Shown: positions 6,845 through 16,302 of the stretch, one piece after another
How the letters are laid out: each line of letters starts with the position of its first letter
Numbering within the stretch: the stretch's first letter is position 1
DNA from: Parahoeflea alexandrii
GTDB lineage: Bacteria; Pseudomonadota; Alphaproteobacteria; Rhizobiales; Rhizobiaceae
Direction: 5' to 3'
DNA length: 64,000 nucleotides
NCBI RefSeq assembly: GCF_027214025.1
Contig: NZ_JAPWHB010000008.1
Coordinates: 124,001 to 188,000, forward strand
Notes under the pieces: generated by a model
Told to the model about the DNA's origin: nothing
Database searches by the model: none
Seen by the model: the letters and a program-made list of their open reading frames with translations, nothing else
Position numbers and translations under genes: made by a program

Positions 6845-8005
6845 CTACTGCTTGCCGATGCGGCGAATGGCTATCTGTGTGAGAAAGGGACCGGCCAGTT
6901 CGAATGCAATGGTGCTGGCGACTGCGACGGCAAGCAGATCCTCGCCGATTTCGGGAAACCGTTCACTGGCAACCAGCGCCATGCCGATCGCAACGCCCGC
7001 CTGCGGCATCAGACCGAGGCCGGTCAGTCTGCTTTCGCGATGTGGCAGGCCCGCGAGGCGACCACCGGCCCAACCGCCGAGCAGACGGGCAAGGGCGCGC
7101 AGAATGAAATAGGCGAAGCAGATATACCCGACTTCAGTCAGGTTGCCGGTTTCCAGCGATGCTCCCGCCATGACGAAAAACAGCAGCATGAAAGGCCATT
7201 CTATGCGCTCGATCTCGTGAAATGGCCGCTCATGGTGGCGGGCAAGATTGACGATGGTTGCACCGCAGACCATGCCCGTGAGCAGGAACGAGAATCCGAA
7301 ATGCAGCGCCAGACCGGCGCATAGAAACACCAGGCCCACCGCCTCGATCAGCGTTGGTTCGCCCGGCCTTATCCGTCCTGTCAGAAATGCCGCGGGCAAG
7401 CCGATTGCCAACCCAAGCGCGATGGCTCCACCGACCTCTCGCCCGCCATGCACCATTGCCACCAGGGCGTCCTGGTCGGCCATGATGCCGGCGAAGGTCA
7501 ATGCCATCGAAAAGGCCAGCAGGCCCCAGGCATCGTCGATGGCAACAATGCCAAGCAGGTTGGTGGCAAAGCGTCCCTTGGCGCCAGCCTGGGTAATGAC
7601 ATCATGCGTGGCGGCAGGATCGGTGGCGGCGGACATTCCGCCCAGTAACACCGCAATTGCGACCGGCAGTCCGATCAGCCAGAGCCCTGTCGCGACAACC
7701 ACGACCGAAACCGCGACCAGCGTCAGCGATATGATCATGATCTCGCGGCCATGGGTTTTCAATGTTTCGGGGCTCAGCGTGCCGCCGAGCAGGAAGGCCA
7801 CCATCGTCAGCGCCGTCGGGGCATAGAACTCGTTGGATTCATTGAAGCTGCCAGGCAGCAGGTCCATGACCGGCGGACCGATGATGGCGCCGAGCAGGAT
7901 CAACAGGGTGACGCGGGGAACATGGACGATCCGACCGATCTTGTCGAGCAGAAGGCCGGCCAGAAACAGAACGCCGACCGCGATAAGGACGTCAGAGTTG
8001 GCCAT
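6845..8005 (-). CDS. Sodium:proton antiporter, CPA (Kef/NhaP-like) family
   Basis: Integral membrane monovalent cation/proton antiporter, 386 residues with about 12 hydrophobic segments. The ion-binding region is visible as SAATDPAATHDVI and the later LGIVAIDDAWGL carries paired aspartates as in CPA2 proteins. There is no C-terminal TrkA-N or USP domain, so it is a short form. I prefer the ATG at 8005 (GGGTGAG upstream) over the GTG two codons earlier. It follows the pentaheme cytochrome gene on the same strand with a strong hairpin between, so it may be its operon partner. Transported ion (Na+ or K+) is inferred from family only. Confidence 0.85.
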   Translation of the reverse strand: MANSDVLIAVGVLFLAGLLLDKIGRIVHVPRVTLLILLGAIIGPPVMDLLPGSFNESNEFYAPTALTMVAFLLGGTLSPETLKTHGREIMIISLTLVAVSVVVVATGLWLIGLPVAIAVLLGGMSAATDPAATHDVITQAGAKGRFATNLLGIVAIDDAWGLLAFSMALTFAGIMADQDALVAMVHGGREVGGAIALGLAIGLPAAFLTGRIRPGEPTLIEAVGLVFLCAGLALHFGFSFLLTGMVCGATIVNLARHHERPFHEIERIEWPFMLLFFVMAGASLETGNLTEVGYICFAYFILRALARLLGGWAGGRLAGLPHRESRLTGLGLMPQAGVAIGMALVASERFPEIGEDLLAVAVASTIAFELAGPFLTQIAIRRIGKQ

Positions 8006-8051
8006 TGTCACTCACCCGACACGATGCGGTTTCCTGCGGACTGTCATGATC

Positions 8052-8107: not shown

Positions 8108-9196
8108 TCAGGGCCGTGTCATGCCGGCCATGTCGACCGCGGTGGCCTTGGATGCCAAGTCCTCAAGGCTGTCATAGGCGAGTTGAATGGCGTAGCGCGG
8201 ATTGTGCGCATAGGCACCGGGCTCCTTGGCCAGGAACTGGTAGTTGTAGGCAGCGCGCAAAAGCCGTGGCGTCCAGCTCTTGTAGCTGTTGGGGAACTTG
8301 GCTTCGTCGGGGTCAGCCGTGCCGTTTCCATTCAGGTCGTTGAAGAAGTAGGGATAGGCGTGACTGTCATAGGCCACAGGCTTGCCGCTCACGTCCTTTG
8401 CATAGAGCCGGATAGCGTCGCCGAGCTTTTCATGCAGGGTGCTGATTTCGGCGCCGATGCCTTCTGTGGCGTTGCCGTCGCCATCGACATCCGCCGGAGT
8501 GGTGCGTATGTCGCGCACGGTTTCTGCGCCCTTGTGGCAGGTCACGCATTGATCGATGGCGACGACCTTGGTCGTGTGCGGATTGTGGCACGTGGTGCAG
8601 GTGTTGAAGTCGGGCACGTGCGCAAAGCGCTCGGCGTAGGCCTTGCCTTCATACTGGTAACCGCCGCGAACCGAACCGCCGAACATGGTTGCTGCCGAGG
8701 CGGCGTAATGCACATTGACGAAGCCGAGATCGCCGTTGACGGTGTCGTCCTCCGCGCCTGCGATCGCCGCATTGACGCTGTCGCTTGAAGCGCGGCCCTG
8801 GTGGCAGACCATGCAGATCGCCGACGGGCTGGCTTCCGTCATGACTTCCCCCGATGGGAAGGTGATCTGTTTGAGATCATGGGCCGCCTGGTTGTGGCAG
8901 GCGACGCAATCGACCGAGGAGCCGATTGATGCCGGGGCATCCACCTTGCCTGCCGCCGATCCGTCAGCGCCAAGGAAATCGAGCATTCCGGACGAGGAAT
9001 GACATGTGGCGCAATCCTCTGGTACCGCGCCTTCCTTGTTCCAGTGAACGAAAGCTTCGGCTTTCCTGTCGCCGTGCGGCGAGGCCATCCAGCTTTCGAC
9101 GATCGCAGTGACGGGTGATGTTTGCTGCGCCTGGGTGACCGGGATGCCGACAAAGACCAGTGGCAACAGGGATATCAGGGTACGGATGTAGGACAT
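8108..9196 (-). CDS. Periplasmic pentaheme c-type cytochrome
   Basis: The 362-residue protein starts with a Sec signal peptide (residues 1-23, cleavage near TQA/QQ). It has five CXXCH heme-attachment motifs: C62-H66, C97-H101, C128-H132, C200-H204 and C217-H221. It should therefore be exported, receive five hemes and act as a periplasmic electron carrier. Spacing is irregular, with three hemes in the first 130 residues and a pair near 200-220, and the C-terminal 140 residues have no heme motif. I do not recognise a named family such as NapC, NrfA or OTR. The start has GGAGG at the right distance. It is transcribed divergently from nqrA, 229 bases away, and precedes the antiporter gene. Its redox partner is unknown. 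Confidence 0.88.
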   Translation of the reverse strand: MSYIRTLISLLPLVFVGIPVTQAQQTSPVTAIVESWMASPHGDRKAEAFVHWNKEGAVPEDCATCHSSSGMLDFLGADGSAAGKVDAPASIGSSVDCVACHNQAAHDLKQITFPSGEVMTEASPSAICMVCHQGRASSDSVNAAIAGAEDDTVNGDLGFVNVHYAASAATMFGGSVRGGYQYEGKAYAERFAHVPDFNTCTTCHNPHTTKVVAIDQCVTCHKGAETVRDIRTTPADVDGDGNATEGIGAEISTLHEKLGDAIRLYAKDVSGKPVAYDSHAYPYFFNDLNGNGTADPDEAKFPNSYKSWTPRLLRAAYNYQFLAKEPGAYAHNPRYAIQLAYDSLEDLASKATAVDMAGMTRP

Positions 9197-9303: not shown

Positions 9304-9425
9304 TGGATGTCCGGTCTCATCCTGATAGGGTTTCCCCACGAAGGGTCTAGGGGCTCTGGTTGTGTGTTCAATGCAATGGCCCGATTCGTGGCAATCAGGC
9401 TGATGAAACAAGGTGGTGTCGGAAA

Positions 9426-10688
9426 GTGTTGCCATGGTTCAGGACTGAACATGCGCGGTTGCCCGAACAGACGGTCCATGATGGAGCGCCTGTCGGACGG
9501 ATCGCCTTGCTGGGTGCCGATCTGCCCGGCCTGCGGCCGAAACTGCTTTGTGAACAGGGCAGCCGGATCAAGCGTGGCCAGGCGGTGTTTCATGACCGCG
9601 CCCATCCGGAAGTTGTTTTCGCCTCACCGATTTCCGGTGTTGTCGAATCGATCACACTCGGGCCGCGCCGCAGCCTGTCGGCTCTGGTGATCCGCCGGGA
9701 GACCGGGCATCATGAGCCGGATCCGGTCAAGATGGCCATGTCGTCGGCCACCGCGGTGCGCGCGGCACTTCTGGCGAATGGCTTCTGGCCTGCTTTCCTG
9801 ACTCGCCCCTTCGGCCGCATCCCGGCTCCCGACGCCGCACCGGAAGCGATCTTCGTCACGGTGACCGCCGATAATCCGCATGCGCCCGATCCCAGGGTGG
9901 TGCTTGCCGGGCAGCATGAGGTGTTTGCGGCGGGTCTGAAGGCGCTGGCCCTCCTGACCGACGGGACGGTGCATGTTTGCCAGTCGCAGGGGGCGGATAT
10001 CGCGGCGGGGCTTGGCGACCGCATTCGCGGCGCCTTCTTTTCCTCTGGCGCCGCTTCCGGTCTTGCCGGAACCCATATTCACCGGCTGCATCCGGTCGGC
10101 TGGGGCCGGTCGGTTTGGAGCATCGGTTATCAGGATGTGCTGTCGATCGGAAGGCTGATCGAGACCGGTATTCCTGATTGCAGCCGCGTTGTCGCCATTG
10201 TGGGTCCGCGGGCAAAGCAACCGAGATTGCTCAGGACGGTTGCTGGGGCGAGTCTGCAGGAGTTGATCCGCGAGGAGACCGTGACGGGCACCGGTGGTGC
10301 TCCGCTTTGCGTGCTTTCCGGGTCGGCGGAAAATGGACGCAAGGCTTCCTGGCTCGGACGTTACCACCATCAGATTACCCTGCTTGATGATGCACCCAAG
10401 CCTGTCAATACTCCGGAACGAGGGGTGATGGCACGTTTCCGGCGGGCTTCCTCAATGCCCGCACCGCTGGTTCCCACTGCAGCACTTGAGCGTGCGCTTT
10501 CCTTGGATGTTCCGGTCGTGCCGTTCCTGCGCGCCCTGAGCGTTGGCGACGCGGAAACCGCCAGCCGTCTGGGATGCCTGGAAATGGTCGAAGAGGATCT
10601 GGCGGCCGTCTCGCTTGCCTGCACCAGCGGCGCGGATTACCGGCGGATGCTGCGCCATGTGCTCGATGAACTTGCGGAGGATGCATGA
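9426..10688 (+). CDS. nqrA: Na+-translocating NADH:quinone reductase subunit A
   Basis: Peripheral cytoplasmic subunit of the NQR complex, the subunit linked to ubiquinone binding. Family blocks are clear: VGRIALLGADLPGLRP near the N-terminus, the biotinyl-like hairpin FASPISGVVESI, AIFVTVTADNPHAPDP, GLAGTHIHRLHPV, SIGYQDVLSIGRL and the C-terminal LGCLEMVEEDLA. I propose the GTG at 9426 because AAGGTGG lies 10 bases upstream and the N-terminus then matches other NqrA proteins; an earlier TTG at 9360 would add 22 unsupported residues. The 420-residue length is slightly below the usual 446. It overlaps nqrB by four bases (ATGA), starting a tightly packed operon. Confidence 0.9.
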   Translation: MLPWFRTEHARLPEQTVHDGAPVGRIALLGADLPGLRPKLLCEQGSRIKRGQAVFHDRAHPEVVFASPISGVVESITLGPRRSLSALVIRRETGHHEPDPVKMAMSSATAVRAALLANGFWPAFLTRPFGRIPAPDAAPEAIFVTVTADNPHAPDPRVVLAGQHEVFAAGLKALALLTDGTVHVCQSQGADIAAGLGDRIRGAFFSSGAASGLAGTHIHRLHPVGWGRSVWSIGYQDVLSIGRLIETGIPDCSRVVAIVGPRAKQPRLLRTVAGASLQELIREETVTGTGGAPLCVLSGSAENGRKASWLGRYHHQITLLDDAPKPVNTPERGVMARFRRASSMPAPLVPTAALERALSLDVPVVPFLRALSVGDAETASRLGCLEMVEEDLAAVSLACTSGADYRRMLRHVLDELAEDA

Positions 10689-11503
10689 CCGGCTGGCTCC
10701 TCGATTCCCATCTCATGCAACAGCGCAGCGGATGGACACCTGCGCGGGTTACGCTGGCCCAGTTGGTTGCGTTGGTCGTGCCCATGGGCGTAAGTCTGGC
10801 CGAGCGCGGGTCTGCGCAAATAGCGGTGCTGGTCACCGCGTCGATTACCTGCCTGGTCTGGGAGCTCGCCTTTGATCTGATCCGTGGCCGATCCCTGAGC
10901 TTCCACACGGTGACGACTGCGCTGATTGTATCGGTTCTGGTGCCGGCGACGGTGCCGCTCTGGCAGATCGCCATGGCCGCGAGCTTCGGGGTGGTGTTCG
11001 GCGAACTGGTGTTCGGCGGAAGGGGCTATGGAATTGTGTCGGCAGCCGCCGCGGCAGCCGGATTCCTGGTGTTTTCCTTTGCCGGTGCCGGCTTGTCCGA
11101 GCCGAGTGAATCCATGGCGCTGGCAACCCTACCGGGCGCCGTGCTGCTGCTTTGGGGCGGACTGATATCCTGGCGCGTACTGGCATCCGCGGCTGCCGCG
11201 CTGATCGCCGCGGAACTTACCCGGCAAGGGGCGAGCGGGCTGCCAACGGTTCTGGCAACCGCCCCGTTCGGGCTTGTTTTCCTCGTCTCAGATCCCGTAG
11301 CTGCCGCGTCCACGCAATGGGGCCGCTGGGTGTACGGTGTTCTGGCCGGGCTGCTGATCGTGCTCTTCGATACGCTTGCAGGGTCCGCGATCGCGCCGGC
11401 GGCCATCGTGTTCGCATCGCTTCTTGCAAGCCTGTTTGCACCGCTGATTGATCATGTCACGGTAACGCTGATCGTCGGACGGCGGGGGAGGCGGCATGGC
11501 TGA
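10685..11503 (+). CDS. nqrB: Na+-translocating NADH:quinone reductase subunit B, short and lacking the FMN motif
   Basis: Membrane subunit of NQR, here only 272 residues against about 410 in Vibrio. Recognisable blocks are VLVPATVPLWQIAM (residues 85-98), FGVVFGELVFGG (101-112), VFLVSDPVAAASTQWGRWVYGVLAG (198-222) and the C-terminal FAPLIDHV. Most of the N-terminal region of the classical protein is missing. The NPALAGRAF segment is replaced by an alanine-rich stretch (residues 118-126). The DxxSGAT motif that carries the covalent FMN threonine is absent: no SGAT or TGAT occurs anywhere. The frame is continuous through conserved blocks on both sides of the loss, so this is not a simple frameshift. 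Overlaps nqrA and nqrC. Confidence 0.85.
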   Translation: MTGWLLDSHLMQQRSGWTPARVTLAQLVALVVPMGVSLAERGSAQIAVLVTASITCLVWELAFDLIRGRSLSFHTVTTALIVSVLVPATVPLWQIAMAASFGVVFGELVFGGRGYGIVSAAAAAAGFLVFSFAGAGLSEPSESMALATLPGAVLLLWGGLISWRVLASAAAALIAAELTRQGASGLPTVLATAPFGLVFLVSDPVAAASTQWGRWVYGVLAGLLIVLFDTLAGSAIAPAAIVFASLLASLFAPLIDHVTVTLIVGRRGRRHG

Positions 11504-12296
11504 ACTGTTGTCACCCATTCGAAAATTCTTCGCCCGCTCGAATGACGATCTGGTCAAGATCATCGGCATGGCAGTCCTCGTCGCGCTGGTCTCGTCTGCG
11601 GCGGTGTCGGTGACAGCGGTCATGTTGAGGCCCTACCAGGAGGCCAACCGGGCGGCCGAACGGCAGGCACGTATCGACCAGATGCTCGATACGCTGCCGG
11701 GCATGCGTGACCTGATGATGGAATCCGGGGTCGATACGCTGGAAACGCGGCTGGTCAACCTGGACGACGGCAGTTTCGCGAGCGGCGAGGATCCCGCCGG
11801 TTTTGATCTCGAAGCGGCGCTGCAGGACCCGGACGCCAGCGTAGCACTTGATGCAGAGGCAGACATTGCCGGCATCAAGCGGCGGGCCAACCAGTCGCCT
11901 GTCTATCTGCTGCAGAAGGATGGCGACCTGAAGCTGATCGTGTTGCCGGTCTATGGCGCCGGATATCAATCCACCATTCGTGCAGCTTTGGCGATCGAGG
12001 CGGATCTGACCACCATTGCCGCGCTGGCGATTGTCGAACAGGGCGATACGCCCGGATTTGGCGCCCGGATCGAGGAACCGGAATGGCTGGCGCTCTGGCC
12101 TGGCAAGAAGATTGCCGACGAGACCGGAACTGTCCGCATCGAACTGGTGCGTGGCGGGGCTTCCACGCCCTATGAAGTCGACGGGATTTCCGGCGCGACG
12201 CGCACCAGCAACGGGATCACCAACATGTTGCGGTTCTGGCTGGGGGACAAGGGGTTTGGCCCGTTCCTGACCAGGCTCAGGCAGGAGGGTCTCTAG
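11496..12296 (+). CDS. nqrC: Na+-translocating NADH:quinone reductase subunit C
   Basis: Single-span membrane subunit with a periplasmic FMN domain, 266 residues, the normal size. A membrane helix lies at about residues 20-45. The flavinylation motif DGISGAT ends in T235, the residue expected to receive FMN from ApbE; the surrounding VDGISGATRTSNGI matches the family closely. The PGFGARIEEPEW segment near residues 186-197 is also typical. The start overlaps nqrB by 8 bases and the stop is followed one base later by nqrD, so expression is strongly coupled. With the FMN site gone from NqrB, this is the only covalent FMN site visible in the complex. Confidence 0.92.
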   Translation: MAELLSPIRKFFARSNDDLVKIIGMAVLVALVSSAAVSVTAVMLRPYQEANRAAERQARIDQMLDTLPGMRDLMMESGVDTLETRLVNLDDGSFASGEDPAGFDLEAALQDPDASVALDAEADIAGIKRRANQSPVYLLQKDGDLKLIVLPVYGAGYQSTIRAALAIEADLTTIAALAIVEQGDTPGFGARIEEPEWLALWPGKKIADETGTVRIELVRGGASTPYEVDGISGATRTSNGITNMLRFWLGDKGFGPFLTRLRQEGL

Positions 12297-12297
12297 G

Positions 12298-12951
12298 ATG
12301 TCGCTCAAACACCATCTCATTAGCCCGCTGATCGGCAACAACCCGGTCACCCTGCAGATCCTGGGCATTTGCTCTGCTCTGGCTGTGACCACCACGCTGT
12401 CCACGGCAATCACCATGTCGGTGGCGCTGACCGTGGTGCTCTGCCTGTCGGGCGGTGTGATCAGCCTGATGCGGCATCATATTCCGCCCTCGATCCGGCT
12501 GATCATCCAGATCACCATCGTGGCTTCGATCGTCATCGTGATCGACCAGTTCATGCAGGCCTTCATGTTCGAGATGAGCAAGCGGCTGTCAATCTTTGTC
12601 GGGCTGATCGTGACCAATTGCCTGGTACTTGGCCGTGCGGAGGCCTTCGCCATGCGCAATCCGGTGCTGCCGAGCGTGCTCGACGGGCTTGGAAACGGCC
12701 TCGGCTACAGCCTGATCCTGCTGATTGTCGGGGCTTTGCGGGAGTTTCTTGGAACCGGCGGGTTGATGGGCGTTCCGCTGGTCTCGACCGTAGCCGAGGG
12801 CGGCTGGTTCGAGCCGCTTGGCCTGATGCAACTGGCGCCGAGTGCGTTCTTCATCCTCGGGCTTCTGGTCTGGCTGGTGCGGGTTCTGCGTCCCGAGCAA
12901 GTGGAGCAGCCTGAGTTCCGTCTGAAGGCCGCGGAGGACCGCCGGCCATGA
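12298..12951 (+). CDS. nqrD: Na+-translocating NADH:quinone reductase subunit D
   Basis: Integral membrane subunit, 217 residues, about six transmembrane helices. The two cysteines that with NqrE hold the intramembrane [2Fe-2S] cluster are present, C25 ([10 protein letters not shown]) and C108 ([15 protein letters not shown]). The family block [19 protein letters not shown] is intact. Length is close to the usual 210. It sits between nqrC and nqrE with one base and four bases of spacing or overlap. Nothing unusual apart from the partner NqrB. Confidence 0.93.
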
Positions 12952-13547
12952 GCGAGTTGCTGATCAAATCCATCTTTCAGGAAAATCTTGCGCTGTCGTT
13001 CTTCCTGGGGATGTGCACCTTTCTGGCCGTCTCCAAACGGGTGGATACGGCTGTCGGCCTCGGGCTGGCGGTCATCGTCGTGCAGGCAATTACCGTCCCG
13101 GTCAACTACCTGATCTTCAATTTGCTGCTGATCGAGGGCGCATGGGCCTGGGCCGGGCTGCCGGATATCGATCTGACCTTCCTGAAGCTGGTGAGCTTCA
13201 TCGGCGTCATTGCCGCGATGGTGCAGATCCTGGAGATGACGCTGGACCGCTTTGCGCCGCGGCTCTACCGGGCGCTCGGCATCTTCCTGCCGCTGATCAC
13301 GGTCAACTGCGCCATCCTCGGTGGCAGCCTGTTCATGGTCGAGCGCCATTATGATTTCGAGCAATCGGTCGTCTACGGTATCGGCAGCGGGGTGGGCTGG
13401 GCGTTGGCGATCATCATCTTCGCGGCCATTCGCGAGAGGCTCAAGTACAGCGACATGCCGAAGGGTGTCGAGGGACTGGCCAGTGCCTTCATCGTCACCG
13501 GCCTGATGTCCCTCGGTTTCTCGGCCTTCTCTCTGGTGACGCCATGA
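12948..13547 (+). CDS. nqrE: Na+-translocating NADH:quinone reductase subunit E
   Basis: Integral membrane subunit, 199 residues with about six helices, inverted in topology to NqrD in the known complex. Cluster cysteines are conserved at C23 ([12 protein letters not shown]) and C121 ([13 protein letters not shown]). It starts four bases inside nqrD and its last four bases overlap the nqrF start, as in a translationally coupled operon. Typical length is 198, so the subunit appears complete. Confidence 0.93.
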
Positions 13548-14764
13548 CTGAGATTGTTCTTGGCATTGTCCTGCTGACGGTGATCGTGCTCGTGCTTGCG
13601 GTCACGGTGATGTTTGCCCGTTCGATCCTGTCGCCGTCGCGCCCGGCTGTGCTGACCGTGAACGGATCGAGCAGGTTTGACACCAGCACCGGGGTCAAGC
13701 TGCTGTCTGCGCTGAACGAGAATGGTATCCTCGTGCCATCGGCCTGTGCAGGTGCGGGCACCTGCGGCCTGTGCCGGGTCAAGATCCTCAAGGGCGGTTC
13801 CGCGCCGCTGCCGACGGAGGCCGCTCGGCTGACCAAGGCGGACCTCCGCGATCATTACCATCTCGCCTGCCAGGTGGTGATGCGCGGCGACATGGAAGTC
13901 GAAGTCGACAACGACCTGATGTCGGCGGAAAAATTCGTCTGCACGGTTGAAAGCGTGCGGGCGTTGACGCCGTTGATCCGGGAAATCGTGTTGCGTCAGC
14001 CCGACGGCATGAAGCTCGATATCGAGGCCGGGTCCTTCGTGCAGGTGACCGCCCCGCCGTTCGAGCAGAATTACTCGGAGATCGACGTGCCCGATGCCCA
14101 CGCGGCGGTCTGGCAGACACTTAGGGCGCTCAAGGTGTCCAGTCCCGCACCGGTGACGCGGGCCTACTCGGTCTCCAACCGGCCGGAGGATACCGAAGCC
14201 GGACGGATCGTGCTCAACATCCGGCTGGCGCTGCCACCGCCGTCGCTTCCCGACGTGATGCCCGGCGTGGTTTCCTCCTGGCTGTTTTCGCTCAAGCCGG
14301 GAGACAGGGTCGATACTTCCGGGCCGTTCGGCAGCTTCCGGGCCCAACCCGGCGAGGCTGAAATGATCTTTATCGGCGGCGGTGTCGGCATGGCGCCGCT
14401 GCGCGCGATCATCTTCGACCAGCTGGAGCGGCTGAAGAGCAACCGCCGCATCAGCTATTGGTACGGCGCGCGCAACAAAGCCGATCTGCCCTATCAGGAC
14501 GAGTTTGATGCGCTGGCCGAAAAGCATCCGAACTTCGGCTGGACGGTGGCGCTTTCCGACCCGCGCCCCGAAGACAACTGGCAGGGAAGCACCGGTTTTG
14601 TGCACATGGTGGCCTGGGAGAAGCATCTCCGGGATCATCCGGCGCCGGAGGCTTGCGAGTACTATCTCTGCGGACCGCCGATGATGATCCGGGCGGTGCT
14701 GGCGATGCTGGATGATGCCGGCGTCGACAAGTCCCATATCTTCACTGATGATTTCGGAGTCTGA
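13544..14764 (+). CDS. nqrF: Na+-translocating NADH:quinone reductase subunit F
   Basis: NADH-oxidising subunit, 406 residues. In order: an N-terminal membrane helix (residues 4-27), a ferredoxin domain with [2Fe-2S] ligands C68, C74, C77 and C109, the FAD-binding motif RAYSVSN at 206-212, and an NAD domain with [10 protein letters not shown] at 278-287 and YLCGPPMM near the C-terminus. All ligands are intact, so the electron entry side of the complex should work. It overlaps nqrE by four bases and is followed at once by apbE. Confidence 0.94.
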
Positions 14765-14768
14765 TGCC

Positions 14769-15734
14769 ATGCGGATGACACGACGCCAATTCCTTGTCTC
14801 GACCGCGGCTGCGGTGGCCTGCACCACGCTTCCGGCGAATGCCGGAACGACCGGTATCGGCGGTCCGGCATTTGGAAGCACCTGGCGGGCGGTGCTGCCT
14901 GATGAAAGCAGATCGGCCGCTGTGCTCAAGCTGGTGGCTTCAGTCGTTGCCGAGATCAATCAGGCAATGTCGCCGTATCAGCAGCAATCGGAACTCTCTG
15001 CCTTCAATCGCGCGGAGACGCTTGACTGGCAGGGCTGCTCGAGACCGCTTGCCAATGTCGCGGCGCATGCGCTCGAGATGTCGCGTTTTACCGATGGCGC
15101 GTTCGATCCGACGATCGGTCCGCTGGTCAACCGTTTCGGATTTGGCCCCATCCACGGTGACCGGGTACATCCGGAAGACCTGTCGGTCTCGGCCAGCGGA
15201 TTGCGCAAGCGAGTGCCCGGCCTGACGCTGGATTTGTGCGGGATCGCCAAGGGTTACGCGCTCGACAGGATCATTGAAGGCTTGCCGGCCGCCGGGGTGG
15301 AGACGGCCCTATTCGAACTTGGCGGCGAGGTCCGTACGCTCGGGCACCATCCGGACGGGCGGTCCTGGCAGGTCGGCATCGAACGGCCCGATGCCGAACC
15401 GGGTGTCATGGAGCGCATCGTTGCGCCCGGTCCGCTGGCACTGGCGACATCGGGAACCGGCAGGCAGAATATCAGCCTTGGCGGGGGCGGGGTCAGTCAC
15501 CTGATCGACCCGCGGTCCGGTCGTCCGGTCGACGCCCTGCCGGCATCGGTGTCGGTGCTGGACTCCGCGGCGATGCGCGCCGACGCCCTGGCGACCGCGC
15601 TGATGGTCATGGGGATGGAGCGGGGGGCGGCGTTCGCCGAGACCCATTCCATCCCGGCGCTGTTTGTCCGGTTTGAGAAGGGCCGCAGCCAGGAGATCAT
15701 GACCGGTGGATTCGACGCTTACGTGACCGCCTAG
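14769..15734 (+). CDS. apbE: FAD:protein FMN transferase
   Basis: ApbE-family flavin transferase that attaches FMN to threonine in DxxS/TGAT motifs, needed to mature NqrC. From the ATG at 14769 the protein has 321 residues and starts with a signal carrying RRQFLVSTAAAVA, resembling a TAT or Sec leader for periplasmic action. Family blocks are visible: LDLCGIAKGYALDRI, LATSGTGRQN, HLIDPRSGRPVD and the metal-binding MRADALATALMVMG. An upstream in-frame ATG inside nqrF is less likely because it would bury the signal peptide. It lies four bases after nqrF and 12 bases before nqrM. Confidence 0.92.
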   Translation: MRMTRRQFLVSTAAAVACTTLPANAGTTGIGGPAFGSTWRAVLPDESRSAAVLKLVASVVAEINQAMSPYQQQSELSAFNRAETLDWQGCSRPLANVAAHALEMSRFTDGAFDPTIGPLVNRFGFGPIHGDRVHPEDLSVSASGLRKRVPGLTLDLCGIAKGYALDRIIEGLPAAGVETALFELGGEVRTLGHHPDGRSWQVGIERPDAEPGVMERIVAPGPLALATSGTGRQNISLGGGGVSHLIDPRSGRPVDALPASVSVLDSAAMRADALATALMVMGMERGAAFAETHSIPALFVRFEKGRSQEIMTGGFDAYVTA

Positions 15735-15746
15735 GAGGAACAGACG

Positions 15747-15911
15747 ATGGAGACATTTCTGCTCGCATTCGGATTGATTCTGCTCTCCGTGCTCGGGCTG
15801 GCGCTGGGGGTTATCTTCGGACGTTCACCGCTGAAGGGATCGTGCGGGGGCCTGGCTTGCGCCAGCGGACTTTCCTGCAGCGGCTGCCGCAAGGGCCAGA
15901 CCCATGAGTGA
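15747..15911 (+). CDS. nqrM: NQR maturation protein NqrM (DUF539 family)
   Basis: A 54-residue protein starting with a membrane helix (residues 4-24) followed by a cysteine-rich tail with C33, C38, C44 and C47 after the family hallmark GSCGGL. NqrM is known to be required for assembly of the NqrD/NqrE iron-sulfur centre. AGGAGG lies nine bases upstream of the ATG. It follows apbE in the same order as in Vibrio-type operons and overlaps the next gene by 8 bases. Short length makes it easy to miss, but context, spacing and sequence agree. Confidence 0.88.
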   Translation: METFLLAFGLILLSVLGLALGVIFGRSPLKGSCGGLACASGLSCSGCRKGQTHE

Positions 15912-16302
15912 GCGACCCCGGATCAGGACCTATATGAGCCGTGAGCTGATCACGCTGACGCCCGAGATGGAGATCAACCGGGCCATGAACCTTCTGATCG
16001 ACAACCGGATCTCCGGCGCGCCGGTCCTCGATGCGACAGGAAACCTGGTCGGCATGCTGTCTCAGAAGGACTGTCTAAAGGCGGCGCTGCACGCGAGCTA
16101 TTTCAGGGAATGGGGCGACACCGTCGCCGACTACATGTCTTCAGAACCGGTGTCCCTGGATGCGGAACTCGATCTCGTGGAGGCTGCAGAAGCGTTTCTG
16201 GCGAGCAGCTTCCGGCGATTTCCGGTGATGTCCGAGGGACGGCTGGTCGGCCAGATCAGCCGGTCGGACCTGCTCCGGGCGCTGGCCGGCAACTGGCAAT
16301 AG
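15904..16302 (+). CDS. CBS-domain pair protein at the end of the nqr operon
   Basis: A 132-residue cytoplasmic protein consisting almost only of two CBS repeats (about residues 5-62 and 72-130). The first begins IRTYMSRELITLTPEMEINRA and the second VADYMSSEPVSLDAE, each ending in a G-x-x-S-x-x-D type nucleotide-contact segment (MLSQKDCL, QISRSDLL). CBS pairs usually sense adenosine nucleotides or NAD-type ligands. It overlaps nqrM by 8 bases, so it is made with the complex. A role in regulating NQR activity by energy state is plausible but only inferred. Confidence 0.85.
   Translation: MSERPRIRTYMSRELITLTPEMEINRAMNLLIDNRISGAPVLDATGNLVGMLSQKDCLKAALHASYFREWGDTVADYMSSEPVSLDAELDLVEAAEAFLASSFRRFPVMSEGRLVGQISRSDLLRALAGNWQ

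What the first reader, a model, noticed from the sequence alone, without database searches (positions are those of the whole stretch)
10685..11503. NqrB lacks the covalent-FMN motif and its N-terminal third
The protein keeps the NqrB blocks around residues 85-112 and 198-260 but is 272 residues long instead of about 410, and no SGAT/TGAT motif exists in it. In known NQR complexes that threonine carries one of the two covalent FMN groups and is in the electron path. All other cofactor ligands visible in NqrC, D, E and F are intact, and the maturation genes apbE and nqrM are kept, so the operon does not look like a dying one. This suggests an NQR variant with a different internal electron route.
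Basis: partly seen in the sequence, partly recalled or inferred. Interest (0 to 1): 0.72.

Follow-up and report, generated by a model that had tools for sequence, protein, structure and literature searches.

The report
NQR variant wired to periplasmic cytochrome
A family of bacterial NADH-oxidising membrane complexes has lost the part that hands electrons to quinone and travels instead with a five-haem periplasmic cytochrome, so it probably sends electrons out of the cytoplasm rather than back to the membrane.

Summary
In detail: NqrB at 10685-11503 is an intact 272-residue protein without the FMN-carrying loop. It is neither an error nor a dying gene. 28 loci in several alphaproteobacterial families share it; 26 of 26 testable loci form one clade on NqrD+E+F, support 1.0; dN/dS is 0.12-0.31. 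Against 62 full-length NqrBs, 28 of 28 lack T236 and E157, 27 lack G140 by the quinone site, 21 lack each riboflavin asparagine. NqrA lost the segment that clasps the missing NqrB N-terminus. NqrC-F cofactor ligands are kept (26 of 26). A pentahaem cytochrome c gene lies beside 24 of 28 operons; genome-wide it is in 12 of 14 short-NqrB genomes and 0 of 32 with full-length NqrB/RnfD. Four same-genus genomes without NqrB pair that cytochrome with a ferric-reductase-type NAD(P)H transmembrane protein. Best reading: a transmembrane NADH-to-periplasmic-cytochrome reductase, NqrB mainly scaffold. Direction and final step are inferred. Nine literature searches showed nothing like it.

The parts
10685..11503 (+). 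nqrB, short form, 272 aa: no FMN loop, no N-terminal quinone helices
   Evidence: AlphaFold model pLDDT 89, pTM 0.86; Foldseek: the 15 hits with E <= 0.001 are all NqrB or RnfD
9360..10688 (+). nqrA (first TTG at 9360; start uncertain, by comparison with relatives a GTG near 9426 looks likelier); segment facing the NqrB N-terminus shortened (31 residues against 50-51)
   Evidence: PF24836 and PF05896; alignment and segment lengths
11496..12296 (+). nqrC, SGAT flavinylation motif kept; the residues aligned to V. cholerae L145-W146 beside the FMN ring are Tyr-Gln
12298..12951 (+). nqrD, both [2Fe-2S] cysteines kept
12948..13547 (+). nqrE, both [2Fe-2S] cysteines kept
13544..14764 (+). nqrF, four ferredoxin-domain cysteines, FAD and NAD domains kept
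14712..15734 (+). apbE, FMN transferase
   Evidence: PF02424 219.7 bits
15747..15911 (+). nqrM, 54 aa, maturation factor (diverged)
   Evidence: sequence; PF04400 E 8.5e-4, below cut-off
15904..16302 (+). small two-CBS protein, linked to the operon in 27 of 28 short-NqrB loci (in the 28th, G008, the contig ends before it)
8108..9196 (-). divergent pentahaem cytochrome c: N-terminus that looks like a signal peptide (my reading), 5 CXXCH, 5 further invariant His
   Evidence: intact beside 24 of 28 operons
6845..8011 (-). Na+/H+ exchanger-family gene beside the cytochrome (neighbour; role in the system not shown)
   Evidence: PF00999 114.7 bits; seen near the cytochrome in 11 of the 28 loci, this one included

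Best explanation
This is a six-subunit NQR remodelled into a transmembrane NADH:periplasmic-cytochrome reductase. NqrF takes electrons from NADH (FAD, [2Fe-2S]). The NqrD/E [2Fe-2S] cluster carries them through the membrane to the covalent FMN on NqrC in the periplasm. There, instead of docking on a flavin in NqrB and sending the electron back to quinone on the cytoplasmic side, NqrC passes it to the pentahaem cytochrome c encoded next door. NqrB is kept mainly as a docking scaffold, and NqrA as a peripheral part for which one relative shows no gene.

Shown here: the lost and kept residues, the single origin, the selection, the linkage and co-occurrence with the cytochrome, and the pairing of the same cytochrome with a NAD(P)H-type ferric-reductase protein in genomes without NqrB. 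Inferred: the NqrC-to-cytochrome step, the outward direction, and NqrB lacking any flavin in this organism. Whether Na+ is still moved (through NqrD/E, say) is open.
For: (1) Lost residues, 28 short against 62 full-length NqrBs: T236 absent 28/28 (T 61, S 1 of 62); E157 in 0/28 (62/62); Asp52 in 0/28, one has Glu (Asp in 61/62); G140 1/28 (62/62); N200 7/28 and N203 7/28 (62/62 each). Roles of these residues: PMC9325719 (passages), PMC10643135 (Results section), PMC4014512 for the helix-III glycines (passages).
(2) NqrA segment equivalent to about 330-380, which intertwines with the NqrB N-terminus (PMC9325719): 21-36 residues in 11 variants against 50-51 in 7 canonical.
(3) The NqrC flavin motif is kept (26/26) but ring contacts changed together: L145 to Y 26/26, W146 to Q 23/26 (Leu and Trp in 53/53 canonical). 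All iron-sulphur cysteines of D, E, F kept 26/26.
(4) Cytochrome intact beside 24 of 28 short-NqrB operons. In one search it is in 12/14 short-NqrB genomes against 0/32 others (Fisher 2e-9; the genomes are related, so this is not an independent-sample test). 0 of 64 canonical loci hold a relative of it or any ORF with 3 or more CXXCH (median locus 16.8 kb, some much shorter).
(5) Partner swap: four same-genus genomes without an NqrB-family gene pair the cytochrome (52-54% identical) divergently with a PF01794+FAD+NAD protein. In a midpoint-rooted tree these four fall among the NQR-linked cytochromes (support for the nesting itself was not printed).
(6) One clade, 26/26, support 1.0, on NqrD+E+F; dN/dS of nqrB 0.12-0.31 over 28 pairs of 8 genomes.
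(7) The NqrB fold is retained.
Against: Two intact short-NqrB operons, G660 and the deepest branch G176, have no such cytochrome beside the operon or anywhere in the genome, so it is not obligatory or was gained later. In G008 none was found either, but that genome is 75% complete and the contig ends at the operon.
Four members (G707, G638, G621, G543) keep all four riboflavin ligands; T162 is kept in 20/28 and D346 in 26/28, so a flavin may remain in NqrB in part of the clade. F338 and F342 of the proposed Na+ gate are mostly kept (22/28 and 24/28).
NqrA is retained in most loci although its known neighbours are the quinone-reducing parts.
The cytochrome family also has members with no NQR beside them.
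No complex could be modelled. The cytochrome model was useless (pLDDT 36), so contact between NqrC and the cytochrome is untested.
Confidence: 0.62

Rival explanations
1. Shortened internal route: NqrC FMN hands electrons directly to a riboflavin still bound in NqrB and on to quinone; only FMN-B is skipped (closest to the first reader's idea).
For: D346 kept 26/28, T162 kept 20/28, fold retained; four members keep all four riboflavin ligands; NqrA mostly kept.
Against: In this protein N200 is Gly and N203 is Ser. G140 is lost in 27/28, and the N-terminal quinone helices and NqrA clamp are lost. G176 keeps none of the four riboflavin ligands and no NqrA gene was found in it. It does not explain the cytochrome linkage.
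Confidence: 0.17
2. The system runs inward: the pentahaem cytochrome collects electrons from a periplasmic donor and the short NQR uses ion-motive force to reduce NAD+.
For: RNF relatives run in reverse on an ion gradient (PMC12174285, abstract and passages); multihaem cytochromes can carry electrons either way (general knowledge).
Against: The partner of the cytochrome in four sister genomes is of the ferric-reductase/NADPH-oxidase type, known for moving electrons outward from NAD(P)H (recalled). I saw no donor oxidase conserved beside the locus, but the flanks were compared only with the window's own genes and with CXXCH counts.
Confidence: 0.12
3. The cytochrome is a passive neighbour; the short NQR passes electrons from NqrC to another soluble or membrane acceptor.
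For: G660 and G176 keep the short operon without that cytochrome; G707 has it on the other side of the operon; relatives of the cytochrome occur without NQR.
Against: 24 of 28 loci across several families; absent from 32 genomes with full-length NqrB/RnfD and from 64 canonical loci. In the apparently decayed locus of G1008 the cytochrome is a fragment as well.
Confidence: 0.07
4. Degenerate or vestigial NQR on the way out.
For: One locus, G1008, has several genes only partial. 8 of 18 genomes of the genus have no NqrB-family gene.
Against: dN/dS 0.12-0.31 for nqrB and 0.05-0.11 for nqrC; ligands of C-F conserved 26/26; the clade spans several families.
Confidence: 0.02

Closest known systems
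[quoted passage not shown] V. cholerae
   Same: Same six subunits and gene order, NqrC FMN motif, NqrD/E and NqrF iron-sulphur ligands, apbE and nqrM.
   Different: NqrB without the FMN-B site, the N-terminal quinone helices and the conserved acids D52 and E157 of the proposed Na+ path; NqrA without its NqrB clamp; a linked pentahaem cytochrome.
Two-subunit 'Nqr/Rnf-like' complexes (PMC8238504, PMC11334425; passages seen)
   Same: NqrB/RnfD-like membrane part lacking the flavinylation site, an NqrC/RnfG-like flavoprotein, proposed one-way flow from NAD(P)H to the outside.
   Different: [quoted passage not shown] Here the six NQR subunits remain, with the NqrD/E cluster as the transmembrane path.
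Rnf with multihaem cytochrome MmcA in Methanosarcina acetivorans (PMC11024163, passages)
   Same: A multihaem cytochrome encoded with an NQR-family machine is its electron outlet.
   Different: Archaeal, ferredoxin-driven, heptahaem and related to octahaem tetrathionate reductases. Homology of that cytochrome to this one was not tested here.
Ferric-reductase/NADPH-oxidase-type transmembrane NAD(P)H oxidoreductases (PF01794+PF00175)
   Same: Paired, by gene order, with the same cytochrome in four sister genomes.
   Different: A different membrane family (PF01794); haem-based and not an ion pump by general knowledge.

Membership tests
Na+-NQR | Six subunits NqrA-F in one operon | tested here: met
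   in the relative G176 no NqrA was found
Na+-NQR | Covalent FMN site (T236 motif) in NqrB | tested here: not met
   absent in 28 of 28
Na+-NQR | Covalent FMN motif in NqrC | tested here: met
   26 of 26 examined
Na+-NQR | Riboflavin ligands in NqrB (T162, N200, N203, D346) | tested here: not met
   this protein keeps T162 and D346 only; all four kept in 4 of 28. Actual riboflavin content not testable here
Na+-NQR | [2Fe-2S] cysteines in NqrD/E and NqrF | tested here: met
   26 of 26 examined
Na+-NQR | Quinone site: NqrB N-terminal helices and glycine of helix III | tested here: not met
   N-terminal block median 5 of 43 residues filled; G140 in 1 of 28
Na+-NQR | Na+ translocation coupled to electron flow | not testable with these tools
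   in NqrB, E157 is lost in 28 of 28, Asp52 in 28 of 28 (one Glu), E274 aligned in 3 of 28; activity unknown
Nqr/Rnf-like two-subunit complex | NqrB/RnfD domain fused to NAD-binding domain | tested here: not met
   separate nqrB and nqrF genes
RNF | RnfB and RnfC as electron input and output subunits | tested here: not met
   the operon has NqrA and NqrF instead
MmcA-Rnf | Multihaem cytochrome linked to the complex as electron outlet | tested here: inconclusive
   a linked pentahaem cytochrome is present; electron transfer and homology to MmcA not tested

The most novel reading that the evidence does not exclude
An NQR subfamily has become a quinone-independent NADH:cytochrome c reductase that exports electrons across the membrane through the NqrD/E cluster, with NqrB stripped of its redox role. 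If it still pumps Na+, pumping cannot need FMN-B, the quinone or the NqrB acids, which would place coupling in NqrD/E.
Probability: 0.55. Interest if true: 0.87.

Novelty: new variant of a known kind. Interest (0 to 1): 0.74.

Why it matters
A 2025 review, comparing RNF and NQR structures, calls the cofactors of the NqrB/RnfD, NqrC/RnfG, NqrD/RnfE and NqrE/RnfA core strictly conserved (PMC12174285, figure legend seen as a passage). This clade breaks that for NqrB while the other ligands stay under selection. It is a natural deletion experiment on the open question of where Na+ is pumped, NqrB or NqrD/E, and it suggests a direct, quinone-free wire from cytoplasmic NADH to periplasmic cytochromes in several families of Alphaproteobacteria.

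Tried and rejected
Sequencing error or frameshift: rejected, the same architecture is in 28 loci. Motif shifted but present: rejected for the site. TGAS strings occur elsewhere in two of the first 14 short NqrBs (G008 at 133, G176 at 47), not at the FMN site and not conserved; this motif check was not repeated for the other 14. The four-letter motif is itself not universal in full-length NqrBs (a relaxed form is in 55 of 62), so the aligned position was used (T or S in 62 of 62). Second, normal NqrB/RnfD in the genome: none found. My first residue table with 14 short NqrBs overstated the loss of N200 and N203; the full set gives 7 of 28 kept for each. In one search one member showed Asp at 52, none: the alignment at that end is uncertain. 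nqrM absence: an artefact of the profile cut-off. The cytochrome model (pLDDT 36) was discarded and no fold search was run on it.

Rows dropped before counts: 2 of 60 genome-contig loci without a full NqrB frame. dN/dS used 8 of the 10 genomes of the genus with the gene for nqrB and 5 for nqrC, chosen for equal length; many pairs have dS above 1 and are rough. NqrA segment lengths were measured in 11 variants and 7 canonical. Start codons of the short NqrBs in other genomes were chosen by rule, so their lengths (254-321) are approximate. The class, order and phylum scans are samples and the phylum match list was cut by the tool, so absence outside Alphaproteobacteria is not shown.

Full report
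What is there. The window carries nqrA (9360-10688), nqrB (10685-11503), nqrC, nqrD, nqrE, nqrF, apbE, nqrM (15747-15911) and a CBS-domain gene, all on the + strand and closely packed. A divergent cytochrome gene lies at 8108-9196. nqrB overlaps the nqrA stop and its open frame is only 277 codons, so nothing is hidden upstream. The 272-aa product scores 127.9 bits to PF03116 in two pieces and falls below the cut-off of each of the six NCBIfam NqrB and RnfD/RsxD models it matches. No other NqrB/RnfD gene was found in the genome (5.54 Mb, 100% complete by the tool).

The loss is shared. Same-genus genomes: 10 of 18 have an NqrB-family gene, each matching in the same two pieces with an open frame of 267-288 codons. 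Class scan, 385 genomes: G000, G312 and G176 are short. Order scan, 297 genomes: 13 short, including G000. Phylum scan, 398 genomes, list cut by the tool: G986, G968 and G1008 were added. A named relative is a Boseongicola MAG, L024. L023 has the same length and matches as the G008 contig and was counted once. Altogether 28 loci were examined. Genes NqrD+E+F, which do not include the trait, put 26 of 26 usable short loci in one clade with FastTree support 1.0; the deepest branch is G176. Pairwise dN/dS within the genus is 0.12-0.31 for nqrB (28 pairs) and 0.05-0.11 for nqrC (10 pairs); pairs with dS above about 1 are rough.

What is missing. I compared 28 short with 62 full-length NqrBs, using V. 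cholerae numbering. The FMN threonine is absent in 28 of 28. E157 is gone in 28 of 28; Asp52 is in none, though one has Glu and the alignment there is uncertain. These two are side chains at the proposed Na+ entry. G140 of helix III survives in 1 of 28; G141 varies even in the canonical set (28 of 62 G, 33 of 62 L), so it says little. Riboflavin ligands N200 and N203 survive in 7 of 28 each, while T162 (20 of 28) and D346 (26 of 28) mostly stay. Four members keep all four ligands and G176 keeps none. So FMN-B and the quinone helices are lost throughout, and the riboflavin site is eroding. In this window's protein N200 is Gly and N203 is Ser. E274 aligned in 3 of 28, uncertainly. F338 and F342 are kept in 22 and 24 of 28. 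Residue roles come from PMC9325719 (passages), PMC10643135 (Results section) and PMC4014512 (passages).

The partners changed with it. NqrA's segment that intertwines with the NqrB N-terminus in the V. cholerae structure is 21-36 residues in 11 variants against 50-51 in 7 canonical NqrAs. In G176 (99% complete) the NqrA domain PF24836 is not found, and profiles of NqrA find none beside its operon. NqrC keeps its flavinylation motif in 26 of 26. The pair V. cholerae L145-W146, reported to touch the flavin ring, is Tyr in 26 of 26 and Gln in 23 of 26, against Leu-Trp in 53 of 53 canonical. All cluster cysteines of NqrD, E and F are kept in 26 of 26. The predicted NqrB fold (pLDDT 89) matches V. 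cholerae NqrB (TM 0.74-0.83 by query, rmsd 5.6-8.0) and RnfD (0.72-0.79, rmsd 3.3-4.8) best.

The cytochrome. The neighbouring gene has five CXXCH motifs in 31 of 31 homologues examined, an N-terminus that looks like a signal peptide (my reading), and five further histidines invariant in 28 of 28, which would suit bis-His ligation of five haems. It is intact in the flank of 24 of 28 short-NqrB loci (one search lists them), divergent from nqrA in 23 and downstream of the operon in G707. It is a fragment in G1008. It is missing in G660 and G176, genome-wide. For G008 the contig ends too soon, and a search found none in that 75% complete genome. In a genome search of 46 handles it is in 12 of 14 with short NqrB and 0 of 32 with full-length NqrB or RnfD. 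None of 64 canonical loci (median 16.8 kb, some under 6 kb) has a relative of it or an ORF with three or more CXXCH. In the class sample of 385 it is found only in G000 and G312.

The swap. Five same-genus genomes without an NqrB-family gene have the cytochrome or a paralogue. In four of them (G004, G005, G012, G014) it stands divergently beside a 487-509-aa protein with Ferric_reduct, FAD-binding and NAD-binding domains. These four cytochromes form one clade (support 1.0) that falls among the NQR-linked ones in a midpoint-rooted tree; support for the nesting was not printed, and the paralogues fall inside too, so the rooting is uncertain. G006, and second copies in G005 and G012, are paralogues; beside those of G006 and G005 lie other multihaem cytochromes. 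A cytochrome whose membrane partner is either a short NQR or a transmembrane NAD(P)H oxidoreductase is most simply an acceptor of NAD(P)H electrons in the periplasm.

Mechanism proposed. NADH, FAD and [2Fe-2S] in NqrF, [2Fe-2S] in NqrD/E, FMN in NqrC, then the pentahaem cytochrome. Steps up to NqrC follow from conserved ligands and the known NQR path. The last step is inference. Moving electrons outward favours reduction of periplasmic acceptors; whether Na+ moves with them is open. What the cytochrome then reduces is unknown; I did not annotate all flanking genes of the relatives.

Known or new. Two related ideas are in print: two-subunit Nqr/Rnf-like complexes without the NqrB flavin site and with one-way flow (PMC8238504, PMC11334425; passages), and a multihaem outlet on Rnf in Methanosarcina (PMC11024163; passages). 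A six-subunit NQR with this loss and this partner was not seen in the listings of searches (open-access PMC papers only; most subscription journals and preprints are not held) nor in the passages seen of PMC12174285, PMC4014512, PMC12052999 and PMC7399021. PDB entry titles list a V. cholerae NqrB-T236Y mutant structure, but no paper in the library holds that term.

Verdict. A real, selected, monophyletic NQR variant. Existence and anatomy: firm. Function as an NADH-to-periplasmic-cytochrome reductase: likely but unproved.

Noticed in passing
window 15904-16302; same place in 27 of 28 short-NqrB loci: A small two-CBS-domain protein is as tightly linked to the variant operon as apbE; possibly a regulator or sensor of the complex.
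   Followed up: partly
window 6845-8011: A Na+/H+ exchanger-family gene follows the cytochrome in this and most loci of the genus and in G057 and G621 (11 of 28 loci), hinting that sodium may still matter.
   Followed up: partly
L134 (G176): The deepest branch has a short NqrB but no NqrA found in the genome and no related cytochrome; a tetrahaem cytochrome gene lies about 1.8 kb upstream with what looks like an alanine dehydrogenase gene (my reading) between.
   Followed up: partly
L154 (G1008): A short-NqrB locus with several genes only partial (nqrA, nqrC, nqrF, cytochrome with 2 of 5 haem motifs): apparently decaying.
   Followed up: no
L139, L140, L141: Paralogues of the pentahaem cytochrome in the same genus; two of them (L139, L140) sit beside other multihaem cytochromes with 6 and 9 CXXCH.
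   Followed up: no
nqrF of the clade, window residues 216, 281, 288, 289: Changes in the NqrF reductase domain: E to D, A to V and S to A in 26 of 26 (canonical E 52, A 52, S 53 of 53), and H to mostly I/M at 289; meaning unknown.
   Followed up: no
G057 and G485 (same genus g41): One has the short NqrB with the cytochrome, the other a full-length NqrB (406-codon frame) without it: two NQR kinds within one genus.
   Followed up: no
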